From contig JAGXFV010000019.1 in NCBI GenBank assembly GCA_024637095.1, positions 1-60,841 on the forward strand: DNA of 60,841 nucleotides. Reading direction: 5' to 3'. The notes beneath the pieces are model-generated. The model was not told the origin of the DNA. It ran no database searches and was given only the letters and a program-made list of their open reading frames with translations. This document shows, in pieces, positions 2,612 through 54,241 of this stretch. Numbering within the stretch: position 1 is the first letter of the stretch; the number at the start of each line of letters is the position of its first letter. Origin of the DNA: Actinomycetes bacterium (GTDB lineage Bacteria; Actinomycetota; Thermoleophilia; RBG-16-64-13). A program made the position numbers and the translations under genes.

Positions 2612-3844
2612 ATGATCACTAGTGGCCAGCCCAAGGTCCTGCTGGGGGTCACCGGCGGTATCGCCGCCTACAAATCCGTTGAAATCCTGCGGGGACTGCA
2701 ACGCAACGGCGTCGACGTAACCGTGGTGATGACTCCGGCCGCCACTCAGTTCGTGGGGCCCCTCACCTTCGAGACGCTTTCCGGCCACCCCGTGCACTTA
2801 GACGCGCAGTGGCTCCGTAGCGACTCGGGCATCGCGCACGTCGAGGAGGGCCGCGACGCCGACCTTCTCCTGATCGCCCCGGCCACGGCCAATACCCTGG
2901 CCAAGATGGCCCAGGGTGTCGCCGACAACCTGCTGACGACCACCTATCTGGCCTTTTCCGGCACCGTGCTGGTGGCTCCCGCCATGAACGCCAACATGTG
3001 GTCTCATCCCGCCACTCAGCAGAATCTCGCCCTGCTCGAACAGCGGGGGGTCGTGGTCGTGCAGCCCGACGAAGGCGAGCTCGCCTGCGGGGTCTACGGC
3101 GCCGGACGGATGGCCGAGCCCGACGGCATCGTCGCCGAGGTCAAGCTTCGTCTGCAGGTAGAGAGGAAGAGCGATTTGCGGGGACTCAGGGTATTGGTCA
3201 CCGCCGGGGGCACCCAGGAACCGATCGACGCGGTGCGCTACATCGGCAACCGCAGCTCGGGGAAGATGGGCTTCTCTCTGGCCCGTGCTGCCCATGACCG
3301 GGGGGCCGAGGTCGATTTGGTGCACTCCAATGTCAAGTTGCCCAAAGTGCCCGGGGTCAACCAGGTGGAAGCTTCCACCGCGGACGACGTCTATCGCGAG
3401 GTCATGGCCCGCCTGCCCGAGGTCGACGTGCTCATCATGGCGGCGGCGGTGGCGGACTATCGGGTCGGCAGGAACGTGGACGGCAAGATGGAAAAGAGGC
3501 GGGAGCACCTCACCATCCAACTGGAGCCCACCGCCGATGTTCTCTGCGAGGTAGCGGCACTGGAGGGCGGCCGCTTTGTCGTTGGGTTTGCCGCCGAATT
3601 CGGGATGGAGGGTCTGGAGCGCGCTCGGGGAAAGCTGGAGCACAAGAACCTGGACATGATCGTCTTCAACGACATCTCGCGCAGCGATATCGGCTTCAAT
3701 GTGGATGAGAACGAAGTGGTCATCCTAACGCCGGAGGGCGACGTCGAAGTGGCCCGGACGGGCAAAGAGGTGGTCGCCGAACGAATTCTGGACGAGGTGG
3801 CCCGGGCCTTACGCCGCCAACGGAAGGCCGGCGTGTCGGTCTGA
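2612..3844 (+). CDS. coaBC: Bifunctional phosphopantothenoylcysteine decarboxylase/synthetase
   Basis: 410 residues; catalyses two steps of coenzyme A synthesis. The N-terminal FMN-dependent decarboxylase half (CoaC, about 1-185) shows GVTGGIAAYK, the PAMNANMW motif and the active-site Cys in LACGVYGAGRM. The C-terminal half (CoaB, about 190-405) joins cysteine to 4'-phosphopantothenate and shows VTAGGTQEPID, RYIGNRSSGKMG and the dimer-interface/nucleotide segment around ADYRV and KMEKR. It ends the mihF-gmk-rpoZ operon. The stop lies inside a 20-base tandem duplication, so a copy of the last codons continues past the stop. A strong hairpin follows 28 bases later. Confidence 0.96.
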   Translation: MITSGQPKVLLGVTGGIAAYKSVEILRGLQRNGVDVTVVMTPAATQFVGPLTFETLSGHPVHLDAQWLRSDSGIAHVEEGRDADLLLIAPATANTLAKMAQGVADNLLTTTYLAFSGTVLVAPAMNANMWSHPATQQNLALLEQRGVVVVQPDEGELACGVYGAGRMAEPDGIVAEVKLRLQVERKSDLRGLRVLVTAGGTQEPIDAVRYIGNRSSGKMGFSLARAAHDRGAEVDLVHSNVKLPKVPGVNQVEASTADDVYREVMARLPEVDVLIMAAAVADYRVGRNVDGKMEKRREHLTIQLEPTADVLCEVAALEGGRFVVGFAAEFGMEGLERARGKLEHKNLDMIVFNDISRSDIGFNVDENEVVILTPEGDVEVARTGKEVVAERILDEVARALRRQRKAGVSV

Positions 3845-32582: not shown

Positions 32583-33347
32583 TTGGCCGAGGGCAGGAGC
32601 ACCGACGCGGGCGGAGCAATCTATCAGCGAGTGCTGCTCAAACTGAGCGGCGAGGCCCTGGTGGGTGGCGGCGGTCAGGGTATCGATACCGCGCGGATGG
32701 AAGAGGTGGCGGATGAGATTGCGCAGGCGCGCGACCTCGGCGTGCAGATAGCCATCGTCGTGGGCGCCGGCAACATCTTTCGCGGCGTGGCGGGAAGCGC
32801 GAAGGGCATGGACCGCGCCACCGCGGATTACATGGGAATGGTGGCCACCGTCATCAATTCCATGGCTTTACAGGACGCGCTGGAAGGCCGAGGCGTCATG
32901 ACTCGTCTGCAGTCAGCCATCGTCATGCAGGAGATCGCGGAACCCTACATCCGCCGGCGCGCGATCCGTCACCTGGAGAAGGAGCGGATCGTGATCTTCG
33001 CGGCCGGCACCGGTAATCCCTACTTCACCACCGACACGGCGGCCGCGCTGCGTGCCCTCGAGATCAATGCCGACGCCATTCTGATGGCGAAGAAGAAGTT
33101 CGCCGGCGTATATGACTCCGATCCCGAGAAGAACCCCGACGCCAAATTCATCCCCCGGATCACCCATCGCGAGGCCCTCGAACGTGGTCTGCGGGTTATG
33201 GACATCACCGCGCTCTCCCTGTGCATGGATAACCGGCTTCCCATTAGGGTTTTCAACATGTCGGAACCCCAGAACATCGTCAAGGTGCTCAAGGGGGAGG
33301 ACGTGGGGACGGTGGTATATTGTGAGCCTTCCGGGACGAGCTCTTAG
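32583..33347 (+). CDS. pyrH: Uridylate kinase
   Basis: 254 residues from a TTG, with GGGAGAGG about ten bases upstream. Converts UMP to UDP; allosterically regulated hexamer in bacteria. Amino-acid kinase fold: [64 protein letters not shown], and [17 protein letters not shown]. The start is the weakest point. frr follows after 29 bases. Confidence 0.96.
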
Positions 33348-49906: not shown

Positions 49907-49968
49907 GACCCTACTCGATGATGGGAAGAAACAGGACTGATGGGTCGAGCGGAATAATGTTTGCGCGG

Positions 49969-49987
49969 CTCCGAGAGGGACTCGGAG
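49969..49987 (+). promoter_or_regulatory. Hairpin in the pnp leader
   Basis: CTCCGAG (49969-49975) pairs perfectly with CTCGGAG (49981-49987) around AGGGA, ten bases before the pnp Shine-Dalgarno. This is the place where pnp messages in other bacteria carry an RNase III-cut stem used for autoregulation. Confidence 0.4.
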
Positions 49988-50010
49988 AGTCGCGACAGGA
50001 AAGGCAGAGA

Positions 50011-52134
50011 ATGGTTGAGAGTACAGGCGGCCAGGTGAGCCGCAAGGAAGTCACGATCGGCGAGCGCAAGCTCGAGTTCGAGACAGGCAAATTGGCGAAG
50101 CAGGCGAGTGGAGCGGTAGTAGTCAGGTCGGGAGATACGGTCGTTCTGGTTACGGCAGTGGTGGCGACGTCCCGCCGGGACGTCGATTTCTTTCCCCTCA
50201 CGGTAGACGTAGAGGAGGGGATGTACGCGGCCGGTAAGTTTCCCGGCGGATTCATCAAGCGCGAAGGGAGACCCAGCGAGCACGCCATCATCACCGCGCG
50301 TGTAATGGATCGGCCGATCCGCCCGCTGTGGCCTAAAGGCTTCAACAAGGAAGTTCACCTCGTGGCGACCGTCATCTCGGTCGACATGGAGAACCCCCAC
50401 GACGTGTTGGCCCTGGTGGGCGCCTCCGCGGCTCTCACCCTGTCTGAGGCTCCCTTCATGGGGCCGGTGGGCGGCGTTCGGGTCGGCCGGGTGGACGGCA
50501 ACTGGGTGATCAACCCCACGTACGCCGAGATCGAGCAGAGCGACATCAATCTGATCGTCGCCGGCACCGCCGACGCCATCACCATGGTGGAAGCGGGGGC
50601 TCATGAGGTCTCCGAGGAAGAAGTGATCCGCGGCCTCGAGATCGCACACGAGGCCATCAAGAAGCAGGTGGAGGCGCTCAGCGAGTGGCGTGAAGAAGTC
50701 GGCGTACCCAAAATGGAGTTCGAGGAGCGCCGTCCCGATAGCCATCTGATGGACAAGATCAAGGCGCGGTTCTCCGGAGACATCCTGGACGCAATTTCGC
50801 GCGAGGAAAAGCACGATCGCTCGGTCACCGTGTCCCAGGTGAAAGAGCAGGTCAAGGAGGCCTGGGCGCCCGCCGAGGATGCGGAAGACCCCGCCCGGGA
50901 AGTCGCCGAGATCTCCCGAGCCTTCGATGCGGTCGAGAAAGAGCTCATCCGCCGCCGTATCGCTGTGGACAAGGTTCGTCCTGACGGACGTGGGGCCACG
51001 CACATCCGCGACATCTCCGCCGAGGTGGGCGTGTCGCCTCGGACGCATGGCAGCGGGCTTTTCACCCGAGGCCAGACGCAGGTACTCACCCTGCTGACGC
51101 TGGGCACCGGCCGCGACGAGCAGCGGGTCGAGGGGCTGACTGTCGCCGATTCCAAGCGCTACATGCATCACTACAAGTTCCCGCCCTTCTCCGTGGGCGA
51201 GGCCGGCTTTATGCGCGGCCCGGGCCGGCGGGAGATTGGACACGGTTTGCTTGCCGAGCGGGCGCTGCTTCCCCTGATCCCCTCCGACGAGGAGTTCCCT
51301 TACACGATCCGCCTGGTCTCCGAGGTCCTGGAGTCCAACGGCTCCAGCTCGATGGCCAGCGTATGCGGCTCTACGCTCGCCCTCCTGGACGGCGGTGTGC
51401 CGCTGAAGGCGCCGGTCGCCGGCATCGCTATGGGACTCATCAAGGAGAAGGACGACTACATCGTCCTGACCGACATCGCCGGGGTCGAAGACCACCTGGG
51501 TGACATGGACTTCAAAGTGGCGGGGACCAAAGCCGGGATCACCGCCCTGCAGATGGACATCAAGATCACCGGCGTCACTTTCGAGATCCTCCGGGACGCC
51601 TTGGCCCAGGCCAAGGACGCACGCCTGGCGATCCTGGACGAGATGAATGCAGCGATATCCGAACCCCGGAGCGTGCTCTCAGATTTCGCTCCGCGTATCC
51701 TCACCGTCAAGATCGATTCCGACAAGATCGGTGCGGTCATCGGCAAGGGCGGCGAAACCATCCGCGGCCTTGAGGACGAGTTCGACTGCACCATCGAGAT
51801 CGACGACGACGGCATGGTCAAGGTCTATGCGACCGACGGCCTAAGCGGCGAAGGCTGCGCCAACCGGATCAAGAGCATCACTAAGGAGATCGAGCCCGGT
51901 GAAGTAATCGTTGGCCGGGTGGCTTCGACCACCAACTTCGGCGCCTTTGTGAGTCTCAAGCCGGGAACCGACGGCCTGGTGCACATCTCCAAGCTGGGCA
52001 AGGGCCGCGTCGAGACCGTCGAGGAGATCGTCAAGAAAGGCGATCTTGTCAAGGTCGAGGTGCTCGATGTCGCCGTGCAGAACGGCAAAGAGAAGGTGAG
52101 CCTGAGGCTCCTGGAAAAGCTGGAGGAGAATTAG
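50011..52134 (+). CDS. pnp: Polyribonucleotide nucleotidyltransferase (PNPase)
   Basis: 707 residues from the ATG at 50011 with AGGAAAGG upstream; an in-frame ATG at 49918 would cover the leader hairpin. 3'-5' phosphorolytic exonuclease. First RNase PH domain (about 15-145; GMYAAGKFPGGFIKREGRPSEHAIITARVMDRPIRPLWP), helical linker, second RNase PH domain (RPDGRGATHIRDISAEVG, LESNGSSSMASVCGSTLALLDGGVP), KH domain (KIGAVIGKGGETIRGLEDEF) and S1 domain (VGRVASTTNFGAFVSLKPGTDGLVHIS). All domains are complete. Confidence 0.96.
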   Translation: MVESTGGQVSRKEVTIGERKLEFETGKLAKQASGAVVVRSGDTVVLVTAVVATSRRDVDFFPLTVDVEEGMYAAGKFPGGFIKREGRPSEHAIITARVMDRPIRPLWPKGFNKEVHLVATVISVDMENPHDVLALVGASAALTLSEAPFMGPVGGVRVGRVDGNWVINPTYAEIEQSDINLIVAGTADAITMVEAGAHEVSEEEVIRGLEIAHEAIKKQVEALSEWREEVGVPKMEFEERRPDSHLMDKIKARFSGDILDAISREEKHDRSVTVSQVKEQVKEAWAPAEDAEDPAREVAEISRAFDAVEKELIRRRIAVDKVRPDGRGATHIRDISAEVGVSPRTHGSGLFTRGQTQVLTLLTLGTGRDEQRVEGLTVADSKRYMHHYKFPPFSVGEAGFMRGPGRREIGHGLLAERALLPLIPSDEEFPYTIRLVSEVLESNGSSSMASVCGSTLALLDGGVPLKAPVAGIAMGLIKEKDDYIVLTDIAGVEDHLGDMDFKVAGTKAGITALQMDIKITGVTFEILRDALAQAKDARLAILDEMNAAISEPRSVLSDFAPRILTVKIDSDKIGAVIGKGGETIRGLEDEFDCTIEIDDDGMVKVYATDGLSGEGCANRIKSITKEIEPGEVIVGRVASTTNFGAFVSLKPGTDGLVHISKLGKGRVETVEEIVKKGDLVKVEVLDVAVQNGKEKVSLRLLEKLEEN

Positions 52135-52159
52135 TACCTCCGGCGGGCAGGAGCGCGCC

Positions 52160-53437
52160 ATTCAAGAGTATCGCCTAGAAGAGCTGAGCAACGGGCAGCG
52201 GCTCGTAACCGAGCGGCTGGACCATGTGCGCTCGGTTACGCTCGGATTCTGGATCCCGGTTGGGTCTCGCGATGAAACGCGGGATCTGGCTGGGGTCACT
52301 CATTTCATAGAGCATCTGCTCTTCAAGGGCACCCAGAAATACACGGCCGAAGAGATTGCCCAGATCTTCGACACGCTGGGGGGCGAGCTCAACGCGGCCA
52401 CTTCTCGCGAGTATGTCGTCGTGTTCGGACGGTTTATCGACGAGCAACTTCCCCGCGCCCTGGACGTCCTGGTTGACATGCTGGTGGATCCGATTTTCGC
52501 CGACCTGGACCGGGAACGAGAAGTGATCTTGGAAGAGATCGCGATGTACGAGGACTCGCCTCAGGATCTGATCCACGATCTGCTCGCCGACACCCTCTTC
52601 GACTCACATCCTCTGGGCCGCCCGGTGCTGGGAAGCCGGGAGTCGATCTCGGGCATGGCCGAGGAGACCATCCGGGAGTATCACCAGCGTCACTTCCAGT
52701 TTGGAGACATGGTGGTGGCGGCTGCCGGCAACGTCGACCACGACCAACTCAAGGAACTCTTGCTGAAGACCCACGGCGGGGTTGGCAACGGGAGCAAGAC
52801 CCCACTGGAGCACAGCCGGCCACACATCGCTCAGCGCTCGGCCTTCCTCAAGAAGGAGACGGAGCAACTCCACGTGGCCCTGGGGAGCGAAGGCATTCCC
52901 CGTAACGATGAGCGTCGCTACACCCTGTCGGTGCTGGACAGCCTTTTGGGAGGTTCGCTCAGTTCGCGCCTTTTTCAGGAGGTGCGGGAGAAGCGGGGAC
53001 TGGTCTACAGCATCTACTCATTCTGCAACATGTACCGGGATACCGGGCTCTGCGGAGTCTACTTCGGGACGCGTCCCGACCGGGCCGGTCAGGTGCTCGA
53101 GGTGGTCTCGCGCGAACTTGAAACTATGCGCAACGTACCGGTGGACGAGTCCGAACTCGAGCGCACCAAGGAGCACCTCAAAGGCCGCATCGTGCTCTCC
53201 ATGGAGAGCACCTCGGCGCGCATGAACCGGCTGGGCAAGGGCGTCCTGACCGGGGCGGAGATCCTTTCGCTGGACGAGATTACCGAACGCATCGACGCGG
53301 TCACGGCCACGGGTGTGCGCGAAATGGTCAACCTAATTTTCGATCCCTCGCGCATGACGCTGGTGGGGATCGGCTCGGAGGAAGAAGTGTTCCGTAAGGC
53401 GGTTTCCTCTTCCGGGGACTCTTTCGGGGCGGCTTAG
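52160..53437 (+). CDS. M16 family zinc peptidase with apparent ATT start codon
   Basis: 425 residues from the ATT at 52160, which has AGGAG six bases upstream. Between the in-frame TGA at 52103 and the GTG at 52226 there is no ATG, GTG or TTG; the GTG would remove the N-terminal strand (YRLEELSNGQRLVTERLDHVRSV) that M16 proteins such as B. subtilis YmxG/MlpA share. Zinc motif HFIEH in THFIEHLLFKGT, with the downstream Glu in EEIAMYEDSPQD; the second domain has LDSLLGGSLSSRLFQEVREKRGLVYSIYS. Processing-peptidase-like, substrate unknown. Placed between pnp and dapB as in other Actinobacteria. Confidence 0.9.
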   Translation: MQEYRLEELSNGQRLVTERLDHVRSVTLGFWIPVGSRDETRDLAGVTHFIEHLLFKGTQKYTAEEIAQIFDTLGGELNAATSREYVVVFGRFIDEQLPRALDVLVDMLVDPIFADLDREREVILEEIAMYEDSPQDLIHDLLADTLFDSHPLGRPVLGSRESISGMAEETIREYHQRHFQFGDMVVAAAGNVDHDQLKELLLKTHGGVGNGSKTPLEHSRPHIAQRSAFLKKETEQLHVALGSEGIPRNDERRYTLSVLDSLLGGSLSSRLFQEVREKRGLVYSIYSFCNMYRDTGLCGVYFGTRPDRAGQVLEVVSRELETMRNVPVDESELERTKEHLKGRIVLSMESTSARMNRLGKGVLTGAEILSLDEITERIDAVTATGVREMVNLIFDPSRMTLVGIGSEEEVFRKAVSSSGDSFGAA

Positions 53438-53449
53438 GACCGGCCTCGT

Positions 53450-54241
53450 ATGAACCCGCAGAAGATCAGAGTGGTGGTGACCGGTGCCGCCGGTCAGATG
53501 GGACGCATCGTTGTCGGGGCGGTCTCCGCAGCGGACGATATGGAACTGCTCGGCGTGGTCGATCCCCTCTTCGGTTCGGCGGTGGCGCACCCCGAGGCCA
53601 CCGGCGCCCTCGGCTCCGTACCTTCTTTTGAGGCACTCGAGAATGCCCTGGACGCGCTTGAGGCCGACGTCGTGGTGGACTTCTCGCTGGCTGAGGGTGC
53701 CCGGCGCAATATCACCGTCGCCTTGGAGAACGGAGTTTCTCCCGTGGTGGGGACCACCGGGCTGACCAAGGAAGATTTTGAGCGCTTTGCCGCCGAGGCC
53801 GAAGCGCTCGGGGTTCCGGCCTTCGTGGCTCCCAACTTCGCCCTGGGGGCGGTGCTGATGATGCTGCTCTCGCAACAGGCCGCTCGCCACTTCCCGGACG
53901 CCGAGATAATCGAACTGCATCACGAACACAAGAAGGACGCCCCTTCGGGCACGGCAAAGCGGACCGCCGACCTGATCGCTGAGGTCTGGCGCGAAACCGC
54001 AGTCAAGGATGCGCATGCACCGGCCGAAGCGGCGCAGGCCGCGGACGCCGTGCCCACCCACAGTGTCCGCCTTCCCGGGATCATCGCCGAGCAGCAGGTG
54101 ATCTTCGGTGCGCTCGGACAGACTTTGACCATCGAACATCGTACGACTTCCCGCGAGTCCTTCATGCCGGGCGTGCTCCTGGCGGTGCGCAAAGTGCGCT
54201 CCTTGCAGGGATTCGTGGTAGGACTGGAGAACATTCTATAG
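53450..54241 (+). CDS. dapB: 4-hydroxy-tetrahydrodipicolinate reductase
   Basis: 263 residues. Second dedicated step of lysine and diaminopimelate synthesis. NAD(P)-binding VVVTGAAGQMGRIVVGAVSA, VVGTTGLTKEDFERF, APNFALGAVLMM, the catalytic His/Lys region EIIELHHEHKKDAPSGTAKRTADLI, and HSVRLPGIIAEQQVIFGALGQTLTIEHRTTSRESF. rnj starts on the base after its stop. Confidence 0.96.
   Translation: MNPQKIRVVVTGAAGQMGRIVVGAVSAADDMELLGVVDPLFGSAVAHPEATGALGSVPSFEALENALDALEADVVVDFSLAEGARRNITVALENGVSPVVGTTGLTKEDFERFAAEAEALGVPAFVAPNFALGAVLMMLLSQQAARHFPDAEIIELHHEHKKDAPSGTAKRTADLIAEVWRETAVKDAHAPAEAAQAADAVPTHSVRLPGIIAEQQVIFGALGQTLTIEHRTTSRESFMPGVLLAVRKVRSLQGFVVGLENIL

What the first reader, a model, noticed from the sequence alone, without database searches (positions are those of the whole stretch)
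52149..52228. M16 peptidase appears to start at ATT behind a perfect Shine-Dalgarno
AGGAG-N6-ATT is ideally spaced, and the 22 residues from the ATT match the N-terminal strand of M16 proteins. No canonical start exists between the in-frame stop at 52103 and GTG 52226. AUU is known as the regulated start of infC in several bacteria. A second odd start in one 61-kb window, both changed only at the third base of ATG, argues for real use rather than chance errors.
Basis: partly seen in the sequence, partly recalled or inferred. Interest (0 to 1): 0.55.

Follow-up and report, generated by a model that had tools for sequence, protein, structure and literature searches.

The report
Peptidase gene starting at AUU
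In a group of soil and sediment bacteria, the gene of a protein-cutting enzyme appears to begin with AUU, AUC or ACG instead of the usual start signals, and this odd start has been kept in many genera, which suggests that a weak start is useful there.

Summary
AGGAG-N6-ATT (52149-52162) precedes an M16 peptidase frame with no ATG/GTG/TTG between the stop at 52103 and GTG 52226; codons from ATT onward evolve as protein, those before it do not. It is no sequence error: the same column is ATT, ATC or ACG in relatives. Of 151 distinct Thermoleophilia start regions 40 lack a nearby canonical start, 5 are ambiguous, 106 canonical; 31 of the 40 fall in three families (49 rows, oversampled). Controls: pyrH 30 of 30 canonical, dapB 74 of 76 scored (2 unresolved), pnp 44 of 44 scored; M16 outside the class 38 of 40. 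infC of this family has a conserved ATA, probably its start (17 of 17), so IF3 autoregulation is likely. The 'second odd start', if pyrH is meant, is ordinary (TTG 32583). Best reading: initiation at a near-cognate codon, helped by a strong Shine-Dalgarno, limited by IF3, next to the pnp stop. Initiation at ATT is well supported by sequence; regulation is inference.

The parts
52160..52162 (+). ATT start codon of the M16 peptidase gene
   Evidence: no canonical alternative; ATT/ATC/ACG at the same column in relatives; coding constraint begins here
52149..52153 (+). Shine-Dalgarno AGGAG, 6-nt spacer
   Evidence: duplex energy with an assumed anti-SD -6.6 kcal/mol
52160..53437 (+). M16 (insulinase/MPP-beta type) peptidase gene, 425 aa
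52301..52315 (+). HFIEH, the HxxEH zinc motif (motif recalled) of the peptidase
   Evidence: sequence; H48, E51, H52 invariant in 14 aligned proteins
52103..52105 (+). in-frame TGA upstream of the M16 frame
49918..52134 (+). pnp (polynucleotide phosphorylase); stop TAG 52132-52134 lies 25 nt before the ATT, in another frame; its own start is not settled
53450..54241 (+). dapB, downstream neighbour and control, ATG start
52226..52228 (+). GTG, the first canonical in-frame codon; unlikely start
   Evidence: column 23 is GTG in 16 of 36 non-canonical loci

Best explanation
The M16 peptidase gene after pnp starts at the near-cognate codon AUU 52160. The initiator tRNA (anticodon CAU) would pair at two of three positions; the strong Shine-Dalgarno at ideal spacing compensates; and IF3, which disfavours codons other than AUG/GUG/UUG, would keep the rate low and responsive to IF3 or free 30S supply. 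The weak start is old and probably kept by selection: in three related families the column is mostly AUC, AUU or ACG, while pnp, dapB and pyrH keep canonical starts. Shown here: the sequence, the lack of another start, the conservation and the contrast with control genes. Inferred: actual initiation at AUU, use of fMet, IF3 control, and a benefit of low or tuned expression.
For: No nearby canonical start in 40 of 151 distinct Thermoleophilia M16 start regions (36 of 98; 4 of 53). Families f1, f3, f6: 7 of 16, 12 of 15, 12 of 18, plus 5 ambiguous in f6. Genus mate G001 and f1 genera g3, g4, g6 have ATT or ATC. In f3, GGAGG or GGGAG-like runs stand 5-6 nt before ATC or ACG. In f6, 12 of 18 loci have the M16-frame stop directly before ATC, and 8 of these 12 have no canonical codon in the first 25. 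The frame relation to pnp differs (another frame in G000; same frame with TAG between in G003, G004, G013; overlap of 14 nt in f6), against readthrough or frameshift as a common cause. Synonymous excess begins at the ATT. infC of the same family has ATA 8-11 nt after GGAGG in 17 of 17, with no canonical alternative in 4; IF3 repression of non-canonical starts, and infC ATT in E. coli and ATC in Streptomyces, are stated in PMC5472188 (introduction and discussion read). A tRNA with CAU and a GGG/CCC anticodon stem is present. SD duplex energy: non-canonical mean -7.57 (n=35), canonical -3.42 kcal/mol (n=57).
Against: No expression data of any kind. Within f1, 9 of 16 rows use GTG, TTG or ATG. 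The SD contrast is confounded with ancestry: 7 of the 9 canonical f1 rows have SDs almost as strong (-5.5 to -7.2), and the anti-SD was assumed, not read from a 16S gene. In 13 of 17 f1 infC genes, the window's genome included, an in-frame GTG or TTG 7-13 codons upstream of ATA remains possible, mostly inside the SD itself. The f3 infC genes have ATG (6 of 6 aligned), so the M16 trait is not tied to infC's own codon. L026 (f6) has ACC at the column and a TTG three codons upstream, so TTG may be the start in part of f6. Five of the 36 rows (L061, L068, L090, L093, L094) are weakly assigned, and 4 of the 36 (L090, L093, L094, L142) have a canonical codon 29-43 codons upstream. In L022 and L137 the frame stays open far upstream with a GTG 89 and 159 codons up. 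Sampling favoured f1, f3 and f6; rows are related, not independent.
Confidence: 0.66

Rival explanations
1. Termination-reinitiation: ribosomes ending pnp stay on the mRNA, are held by the SD and restart at the near-cognate codon, so M16 output is tied to pnp translation. Not exclusive with IF3 control.
For: All 34 non-canonical rows with a resolved pnp end (of 36; one unresolved, one without an assigned codon) lie -14 to +39 nt from the pnp stop. In the 18-row clade that holds the f4 loci, the 10 rows with a resolved pnp lie 616-2598 nt away and start at GTG (9) or ATG (1). PMC2268962 (passages read) cites initiation at non-canonical codons downstream of the stop when ribosome recycling factor is inactivated.
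Against: Many canonical rows are just as close to the pnp stop. The same paper takes that finding to mean that recycling and a 30S-IF3 complex make reinitiation accurate. The predicted fold around the site is no better than shuffles (z -0.76).
Confidence: 0.35
2. Neutral tolerance: the strong SD makes the codon nearly irrelevant, drift among near-cognates is harmless and nothing is regulated.
For: The codon label changes at least 27 times on the tree (a count that includes changes among ATG, GTG and TTG), and relatives with canonical starts are common.
Against: Change between the canonical and non-canonical classes is rare (8 on 97 rows); pnp, dapB and pyrH show no such drift in the loci scored.
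Confidence: 0.25
3. The real start is the downstream GTG 52226 and residues 1-22 are untranslated.
For: GTG 52226 is the first canonical codon; the Pfam M16 score falls by only 2 bits; column 23 is GTG in 16 of 36 non-canonical loci.
Against: Synonymous excess in codons 1-22; residues 3-22 align with solved MPP-beta; the other 20 of 36 loci lack GTG there.
Confidence: 0.04
4. A pnp-M16 fusion by readthrough or frameshift.
For: In G003, G004, G013 the frames are the same with one TAG between; in f6 they overlap.
Against: In G000 pnp is in another frame and ends 25 nt upstream with a fresh SD between; frame relations differ among relatives.
Confidence: 0.02
5. Sequencing or assembly error of ATG.
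For: The window comes from a draft assembly of 49 contigs.
Against: Same or similar codon in dozens of separate assemblies.
Confidence: 0.005

Closest known systems
infC (IF3) AUU/AUC start and IF3 autoregulation
   Same: Near-cognate start behind an SD; IF3 would disfavour it
   Different: The product is a peptidase, so no feedback loop on IF3 is expected; the codon varies among AUU, AUC and ACG. E. coli ATT and Streptomyces ATC as stated in PMC5472188 (introduction).
Streptomyces sigR GTC start repressed by IF3 (PMC5472188)
   Same: Gene other than infC, in Actinomycetota, conserved non-canonical start with an extended SD, in an operon where relative output of neighbours may matter
   Different: Other codon; here shared by several families, whereas the paper finds sigR GTC only in Streptomyces; no experiment here
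E. coli pcnB AUU start (recalled)
   Same: Gene other than infC with an AUU start, linked to RNA decay (here the neighbour is pnp)
   Different: Different gene and lineage; recalled, not tested
M16B processing peptidases (Bacillus halodurans, 3hdi; the organism and the B. subtilis MlpA/YmxG place after pnp are recalled)
   Same: Protein family; 3hdi is the best solved match
   Different: In other Actinomycetota the start is canonical in 38 of 40 loci read

Membership tests
M16 peptidase | PF00675 and PF05193 domains | tested here: met
   both over the gathering score
M16 peptidase | HxxEH zinc motif (recalled) | tested here: met
   HFIEH at residues 48-52; H48, E51, H52 invariant in 14 aligned proteins
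Genes with a non-canonical start codon | no ATG/GTG/TTG able to start the conserved protein | tested here: met
Genes with a non-canonical start codon | same state conserved in relatives | tested here: met
   mixed within f1 (7 of 16)
Genes with a non-canonical start codon | initiation at the codon shown by protein or ribosome data | not testable with these tools
   no such data at hand
IF3-regulated starts (infC, sigR) | expression changes with IF3 level or start codon | not testable with these tools
   needs genetics
IF3-regulated starts (infC, sigR) | IF3 gene present, itself with a non-canonical start | tested here: inconclusive
   one infC match in the genome; ATA conserved 17 of 17 in f1 and forced in 4; in G000 itself an in-frame GTG 8 codons upstream remains possible

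The most novel reading that the evidence does not exclude
Selection has held this peptidase gene at a deliberately poor start over much of the history of three Thermoleophilia families, letting the codon change among AUC, AUU and ACG but seldom become AUG or GUG, so that M16 output is set by IF3 or ribosome supply and by pnp translation: an IF3-sensitive control point outside infC, shared by a whole clade and missed by gene callers, with ACG as a natural bacterial start.
Probability: 0.35. Interest if true: 0.75.

Novelty: new member of a known kind. Interest (0 to 1): 0.58.

Why it matters
Few bacterial genes are documented to keep non-canonical starts; infC and sigR are the cases I read about (PMC5472188). 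A clade-wide example with changing codons gives a natural series to test how AUU, AUC, ACG and CUG start in cells and why a weak start would be preferred. It would also mean a systematic annotation error (inference): a gene caller limited to ATG/GTG/TTG must cut about 22 residues here.

Tried and rejected
Rejected: readthrough, frameshift, truncated start, sequence error (see rivals). RNA structure at the start: fold no better than shuffles. General relaxation of start choice: not supported by pyrH, dapB or pnp; the window survey is inconclusive on it. Special initiator tRNA: nothing odd seen, but of 40 tRNA hits only 30 got loci and I scanned 25 of those. Literature: seven searches listed no paper on an M16 or Thermoleophilia non-canonical start; only listings were seen, except PMC5472188 (outline with abstract, introduction, discussion) and PMC2268962 (passages). 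Not done: whole-genome scan for other odd starts; IF3 residue analysis; 16S anti-SD check.

Rows dropped and criteria: of 117 distinct M16 loci (138 found), 19 were left out of the Thermoleophilia set, 17 as outside the class and 2 as truncated, by my reading of titles and distance, not by taxonomy look-up. One of 98 rows was too short for the tree. Non-canonical in the 98 means no ATG/GTG/TTG within 12 codons upstream or 3 downstream of the anchor Tyr4; 32 of the 36 have none within 60 codons or up to the upstream stop. In the 60 short regions the limit was 15 codons up and 6 down; in the phylum sample 25 up and 8 down, and I fetched 40 of the 69 matched genomes outside the class. Controls were scored more loosely: dapB 88 loci examined, 12 not aligned at the N-terminus, 74 of 76 canonical, 2 unresolved (alignment began in another frame); pnp 102 examined, 57 not aligned, 1 off the end, 44 of 44 with a canonical codon, in 12 of them only 13-21 codons upstream; both sets include loci outside the class. 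pyrH 30 of 30 with a canonical codon up to 21 codons upstream (30 of 57 matched genomes had loci). infC 49 of 50 loci aligned.

Full report
What is in the sequence. The window is a whole contig of a 2.47-Mb draft genome. Between pnp (stop 52132-52134) and dapB (53450-54241) lies an M16 peptidase frame. Upstream in frame is TGA 52103-52105; the next ATG/GTG/TTG in frame is GTG 52226. AGGAG 52149-52153, six bases, then ATT 52160. The protein from ATT carries PF00675 and PF05193 and HFIEH, and matches the processing protease 3hdi (8e-94, from residue 9) and mitochondrial MPP-beta (from residue 3).

Relatives. 59 of 61 near genomes hold the gene. Reading 30 loci showed the same column as ATT in the genus mate G001 and in G003, ATC in G004, G013 and G006, and GTG, TTG or ATG nearby in the other f1 loci. 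Names come from the genome-contig scan and from loci identical to unnamed ones: titles are Thermoleophilia, Gaiellales, Solirubrobacterales and unclassified Actinomycetota MAGs; I call the class Thermoleophilia on that ground. Family searches gave 18 loci of f6 and 15 of f3. In f6 ATC stands at the column in 17 of 18; in 12 the M16-frame stop is directly before it, in 5 a TTG lies three or four codons upstream (ambiguous); L026 has ACC with that TTG. In f3: ATC behind GGAGG in G049, G044, G019, G029; ACG behind GGGAG or a similar run in all 7 loci of g19 (6 genomes) and behind GGAGG in G076; canonical in three.

Counts. 138 M16 loci reduce to 117 distinct; 98 were taken as Thermoleophilia: 57 canonical, 36 without a canonical codon within 12 codons upstream or 3 downstream of the anchor, 5 ambiguous. 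Four of the 36 have a canonical codon 29-43 codons upstream; 32 have none within 60 or up to the stop. Sixty further start regions, mostly of other families, were fetched, 53 new: 49 canonical, 4 without a canonical codon, all with CTG at or next to the column (L223, L238, L256, L258). Together 40 of 151, with f1, f3 and f6 deliberately oversampled and rows related to each other. Of 40 loci from other Actinomycetota (of 69 matched), 38 were canonical. The secure core is the 31 rows of f1 (7 of 16), f3 (12 of 15) and f6 (12 of 18).

Tree. A quick tree of 97 proteins without the N-terminus groups f1, f3 and f6 (49 rows, SH-aLRT 96). Fewest changes between canonical and non-canonical: 8, whether the ambiguous rows are left out or counted as non-canonical; fewest changes of the codon label: 27 (labels include ATG, GTG, TTG). 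So the class of start is kept better than the codon. The tree is quick, with a simple model.

Coding boundary. Against five relatives, codons 1-22 show as many or more synonymous than non-synonymous differences, the 18 codons upstream mostly non-synonymous ones (ungapped; the closest relative is uninformative). At the start column 33 of 36 non-canonical rows have ATT, ATC, ACG or CTG, at the next column none; conserved Leu and Thr columns also score high, so this is supportive only.

Controls. dapB: 74 of 76 scored loci canonical, 2 unresolved. pnp: 44 of 44 scored have a canonical codon, in 12 only 13-21 codons upstream. pyrH: 30 of 30, up to 21 codons upstream. These were scored more loosely than M16 and partly include loci outside the class. 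pyrH of the window (ATC 32619 in G000, ATA in G001) has TTG 32583 upstream, homologous to GTG in g4 (L176, L178), so it is ordinary. The window survey flagged 19 of 55 ORFs and was not resolved for the 18 others.

Initiation machinery. infC gave one match. In f1, 17 of 17 infC genes found have ATA 8-11 nt after GGAGG; in four (L144, L147, L152, L156) a stop removes any canonical option, in the other 13 a GTG or TTG 7-13 codons upstream, mostly inside the SD, remains possible. In f6, 7 of 7 have GTC at one place, three with no canonical codon. The other 25 of the 49 aligned infC loci have a canonical codon. Three CAU tRNAs were found, one (L314) with the GGG/CCC anticodon stem of initiators (the hallmark is recalled). 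IF3 feedback in the window's family is therefore likely, from the known infC case (PMC5472188).

Mechanism. Strong SD with a near-cognate start: mean duplex energy -7.57 against -3.42 kcal/mol for canonical rows, partly an effect of ancestry. Every non-canonical row with a resolved pnp end is within -14 to +39 nt of it (34 of 34), but many canonical rows are too. In the clade with the f4 loci, M16 has left pnp (10 rows resolved, 616-2598 nt) and starts at GTG or ATG, often a few bases after TACGAT-like hexamers, which looks like a leaderless transcript (by eye). I favour IF3-limited initiation, with reinitiation by pnp ribosomes as a contributing or alternative route. Neither was tested.

Novelty. 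Genes with conserved non-canonical starts are known (infC; sigR GTC in Streptomyces, PMC5472188), so this is a new member of a known kind. Unusual are the depth of conservation and the exchange among AUC, AUU and ACG in one gene. My searches listed nothing on this gene.

Noticed in passing
L111 (G000:C1:16334-16831, minus) and L144-L159: infC in the window's family has a conserved ATA after GGAGG (17 of 17), the only possible start in four genomes.
   Followed up: yes
L167, L170, L172, L263-L266: infC in family f6 has a conserved GTC at one position (7 of 7) and no canonical start in three: a possible GUC start like that of Streptomyces sigR.
   Followed up: partly
L021, L037, L038, L041, L043, L046, L050, L204, L207-L210: In the f4 clade M16 is far from pnp where this could be resolved, and its GTG follows TACGAT-like hexamers by about 6 nt, as in leaderless mRNAs.
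   Followed up: no
L098 and L102, near 2970-3000: M16 of two MAGs titled Methylomirabilota, downstream of pnp, may also start at ATC after an AGGGGAAG run; no canonical codon within 60 upstream of the anchor.
   Followed up: no
L223, L238, L256, L258, L068, L094: Possible CTG starts of the same gene in families f5, f7, f9, in Solirubrobacter deserti (L068) and in a Solirubrobacteraceae MAG (L094).
   Followed up: partly
G009:C92, G265:C152, G333:C6: M16 matches with one or two in-frame TGA codons inside.
   Followed up: no
32583-32618: pyrH has a 12-residue N-terminal extension from TTG, shared with g4 and variable elsewhere.
   Followed up: partly
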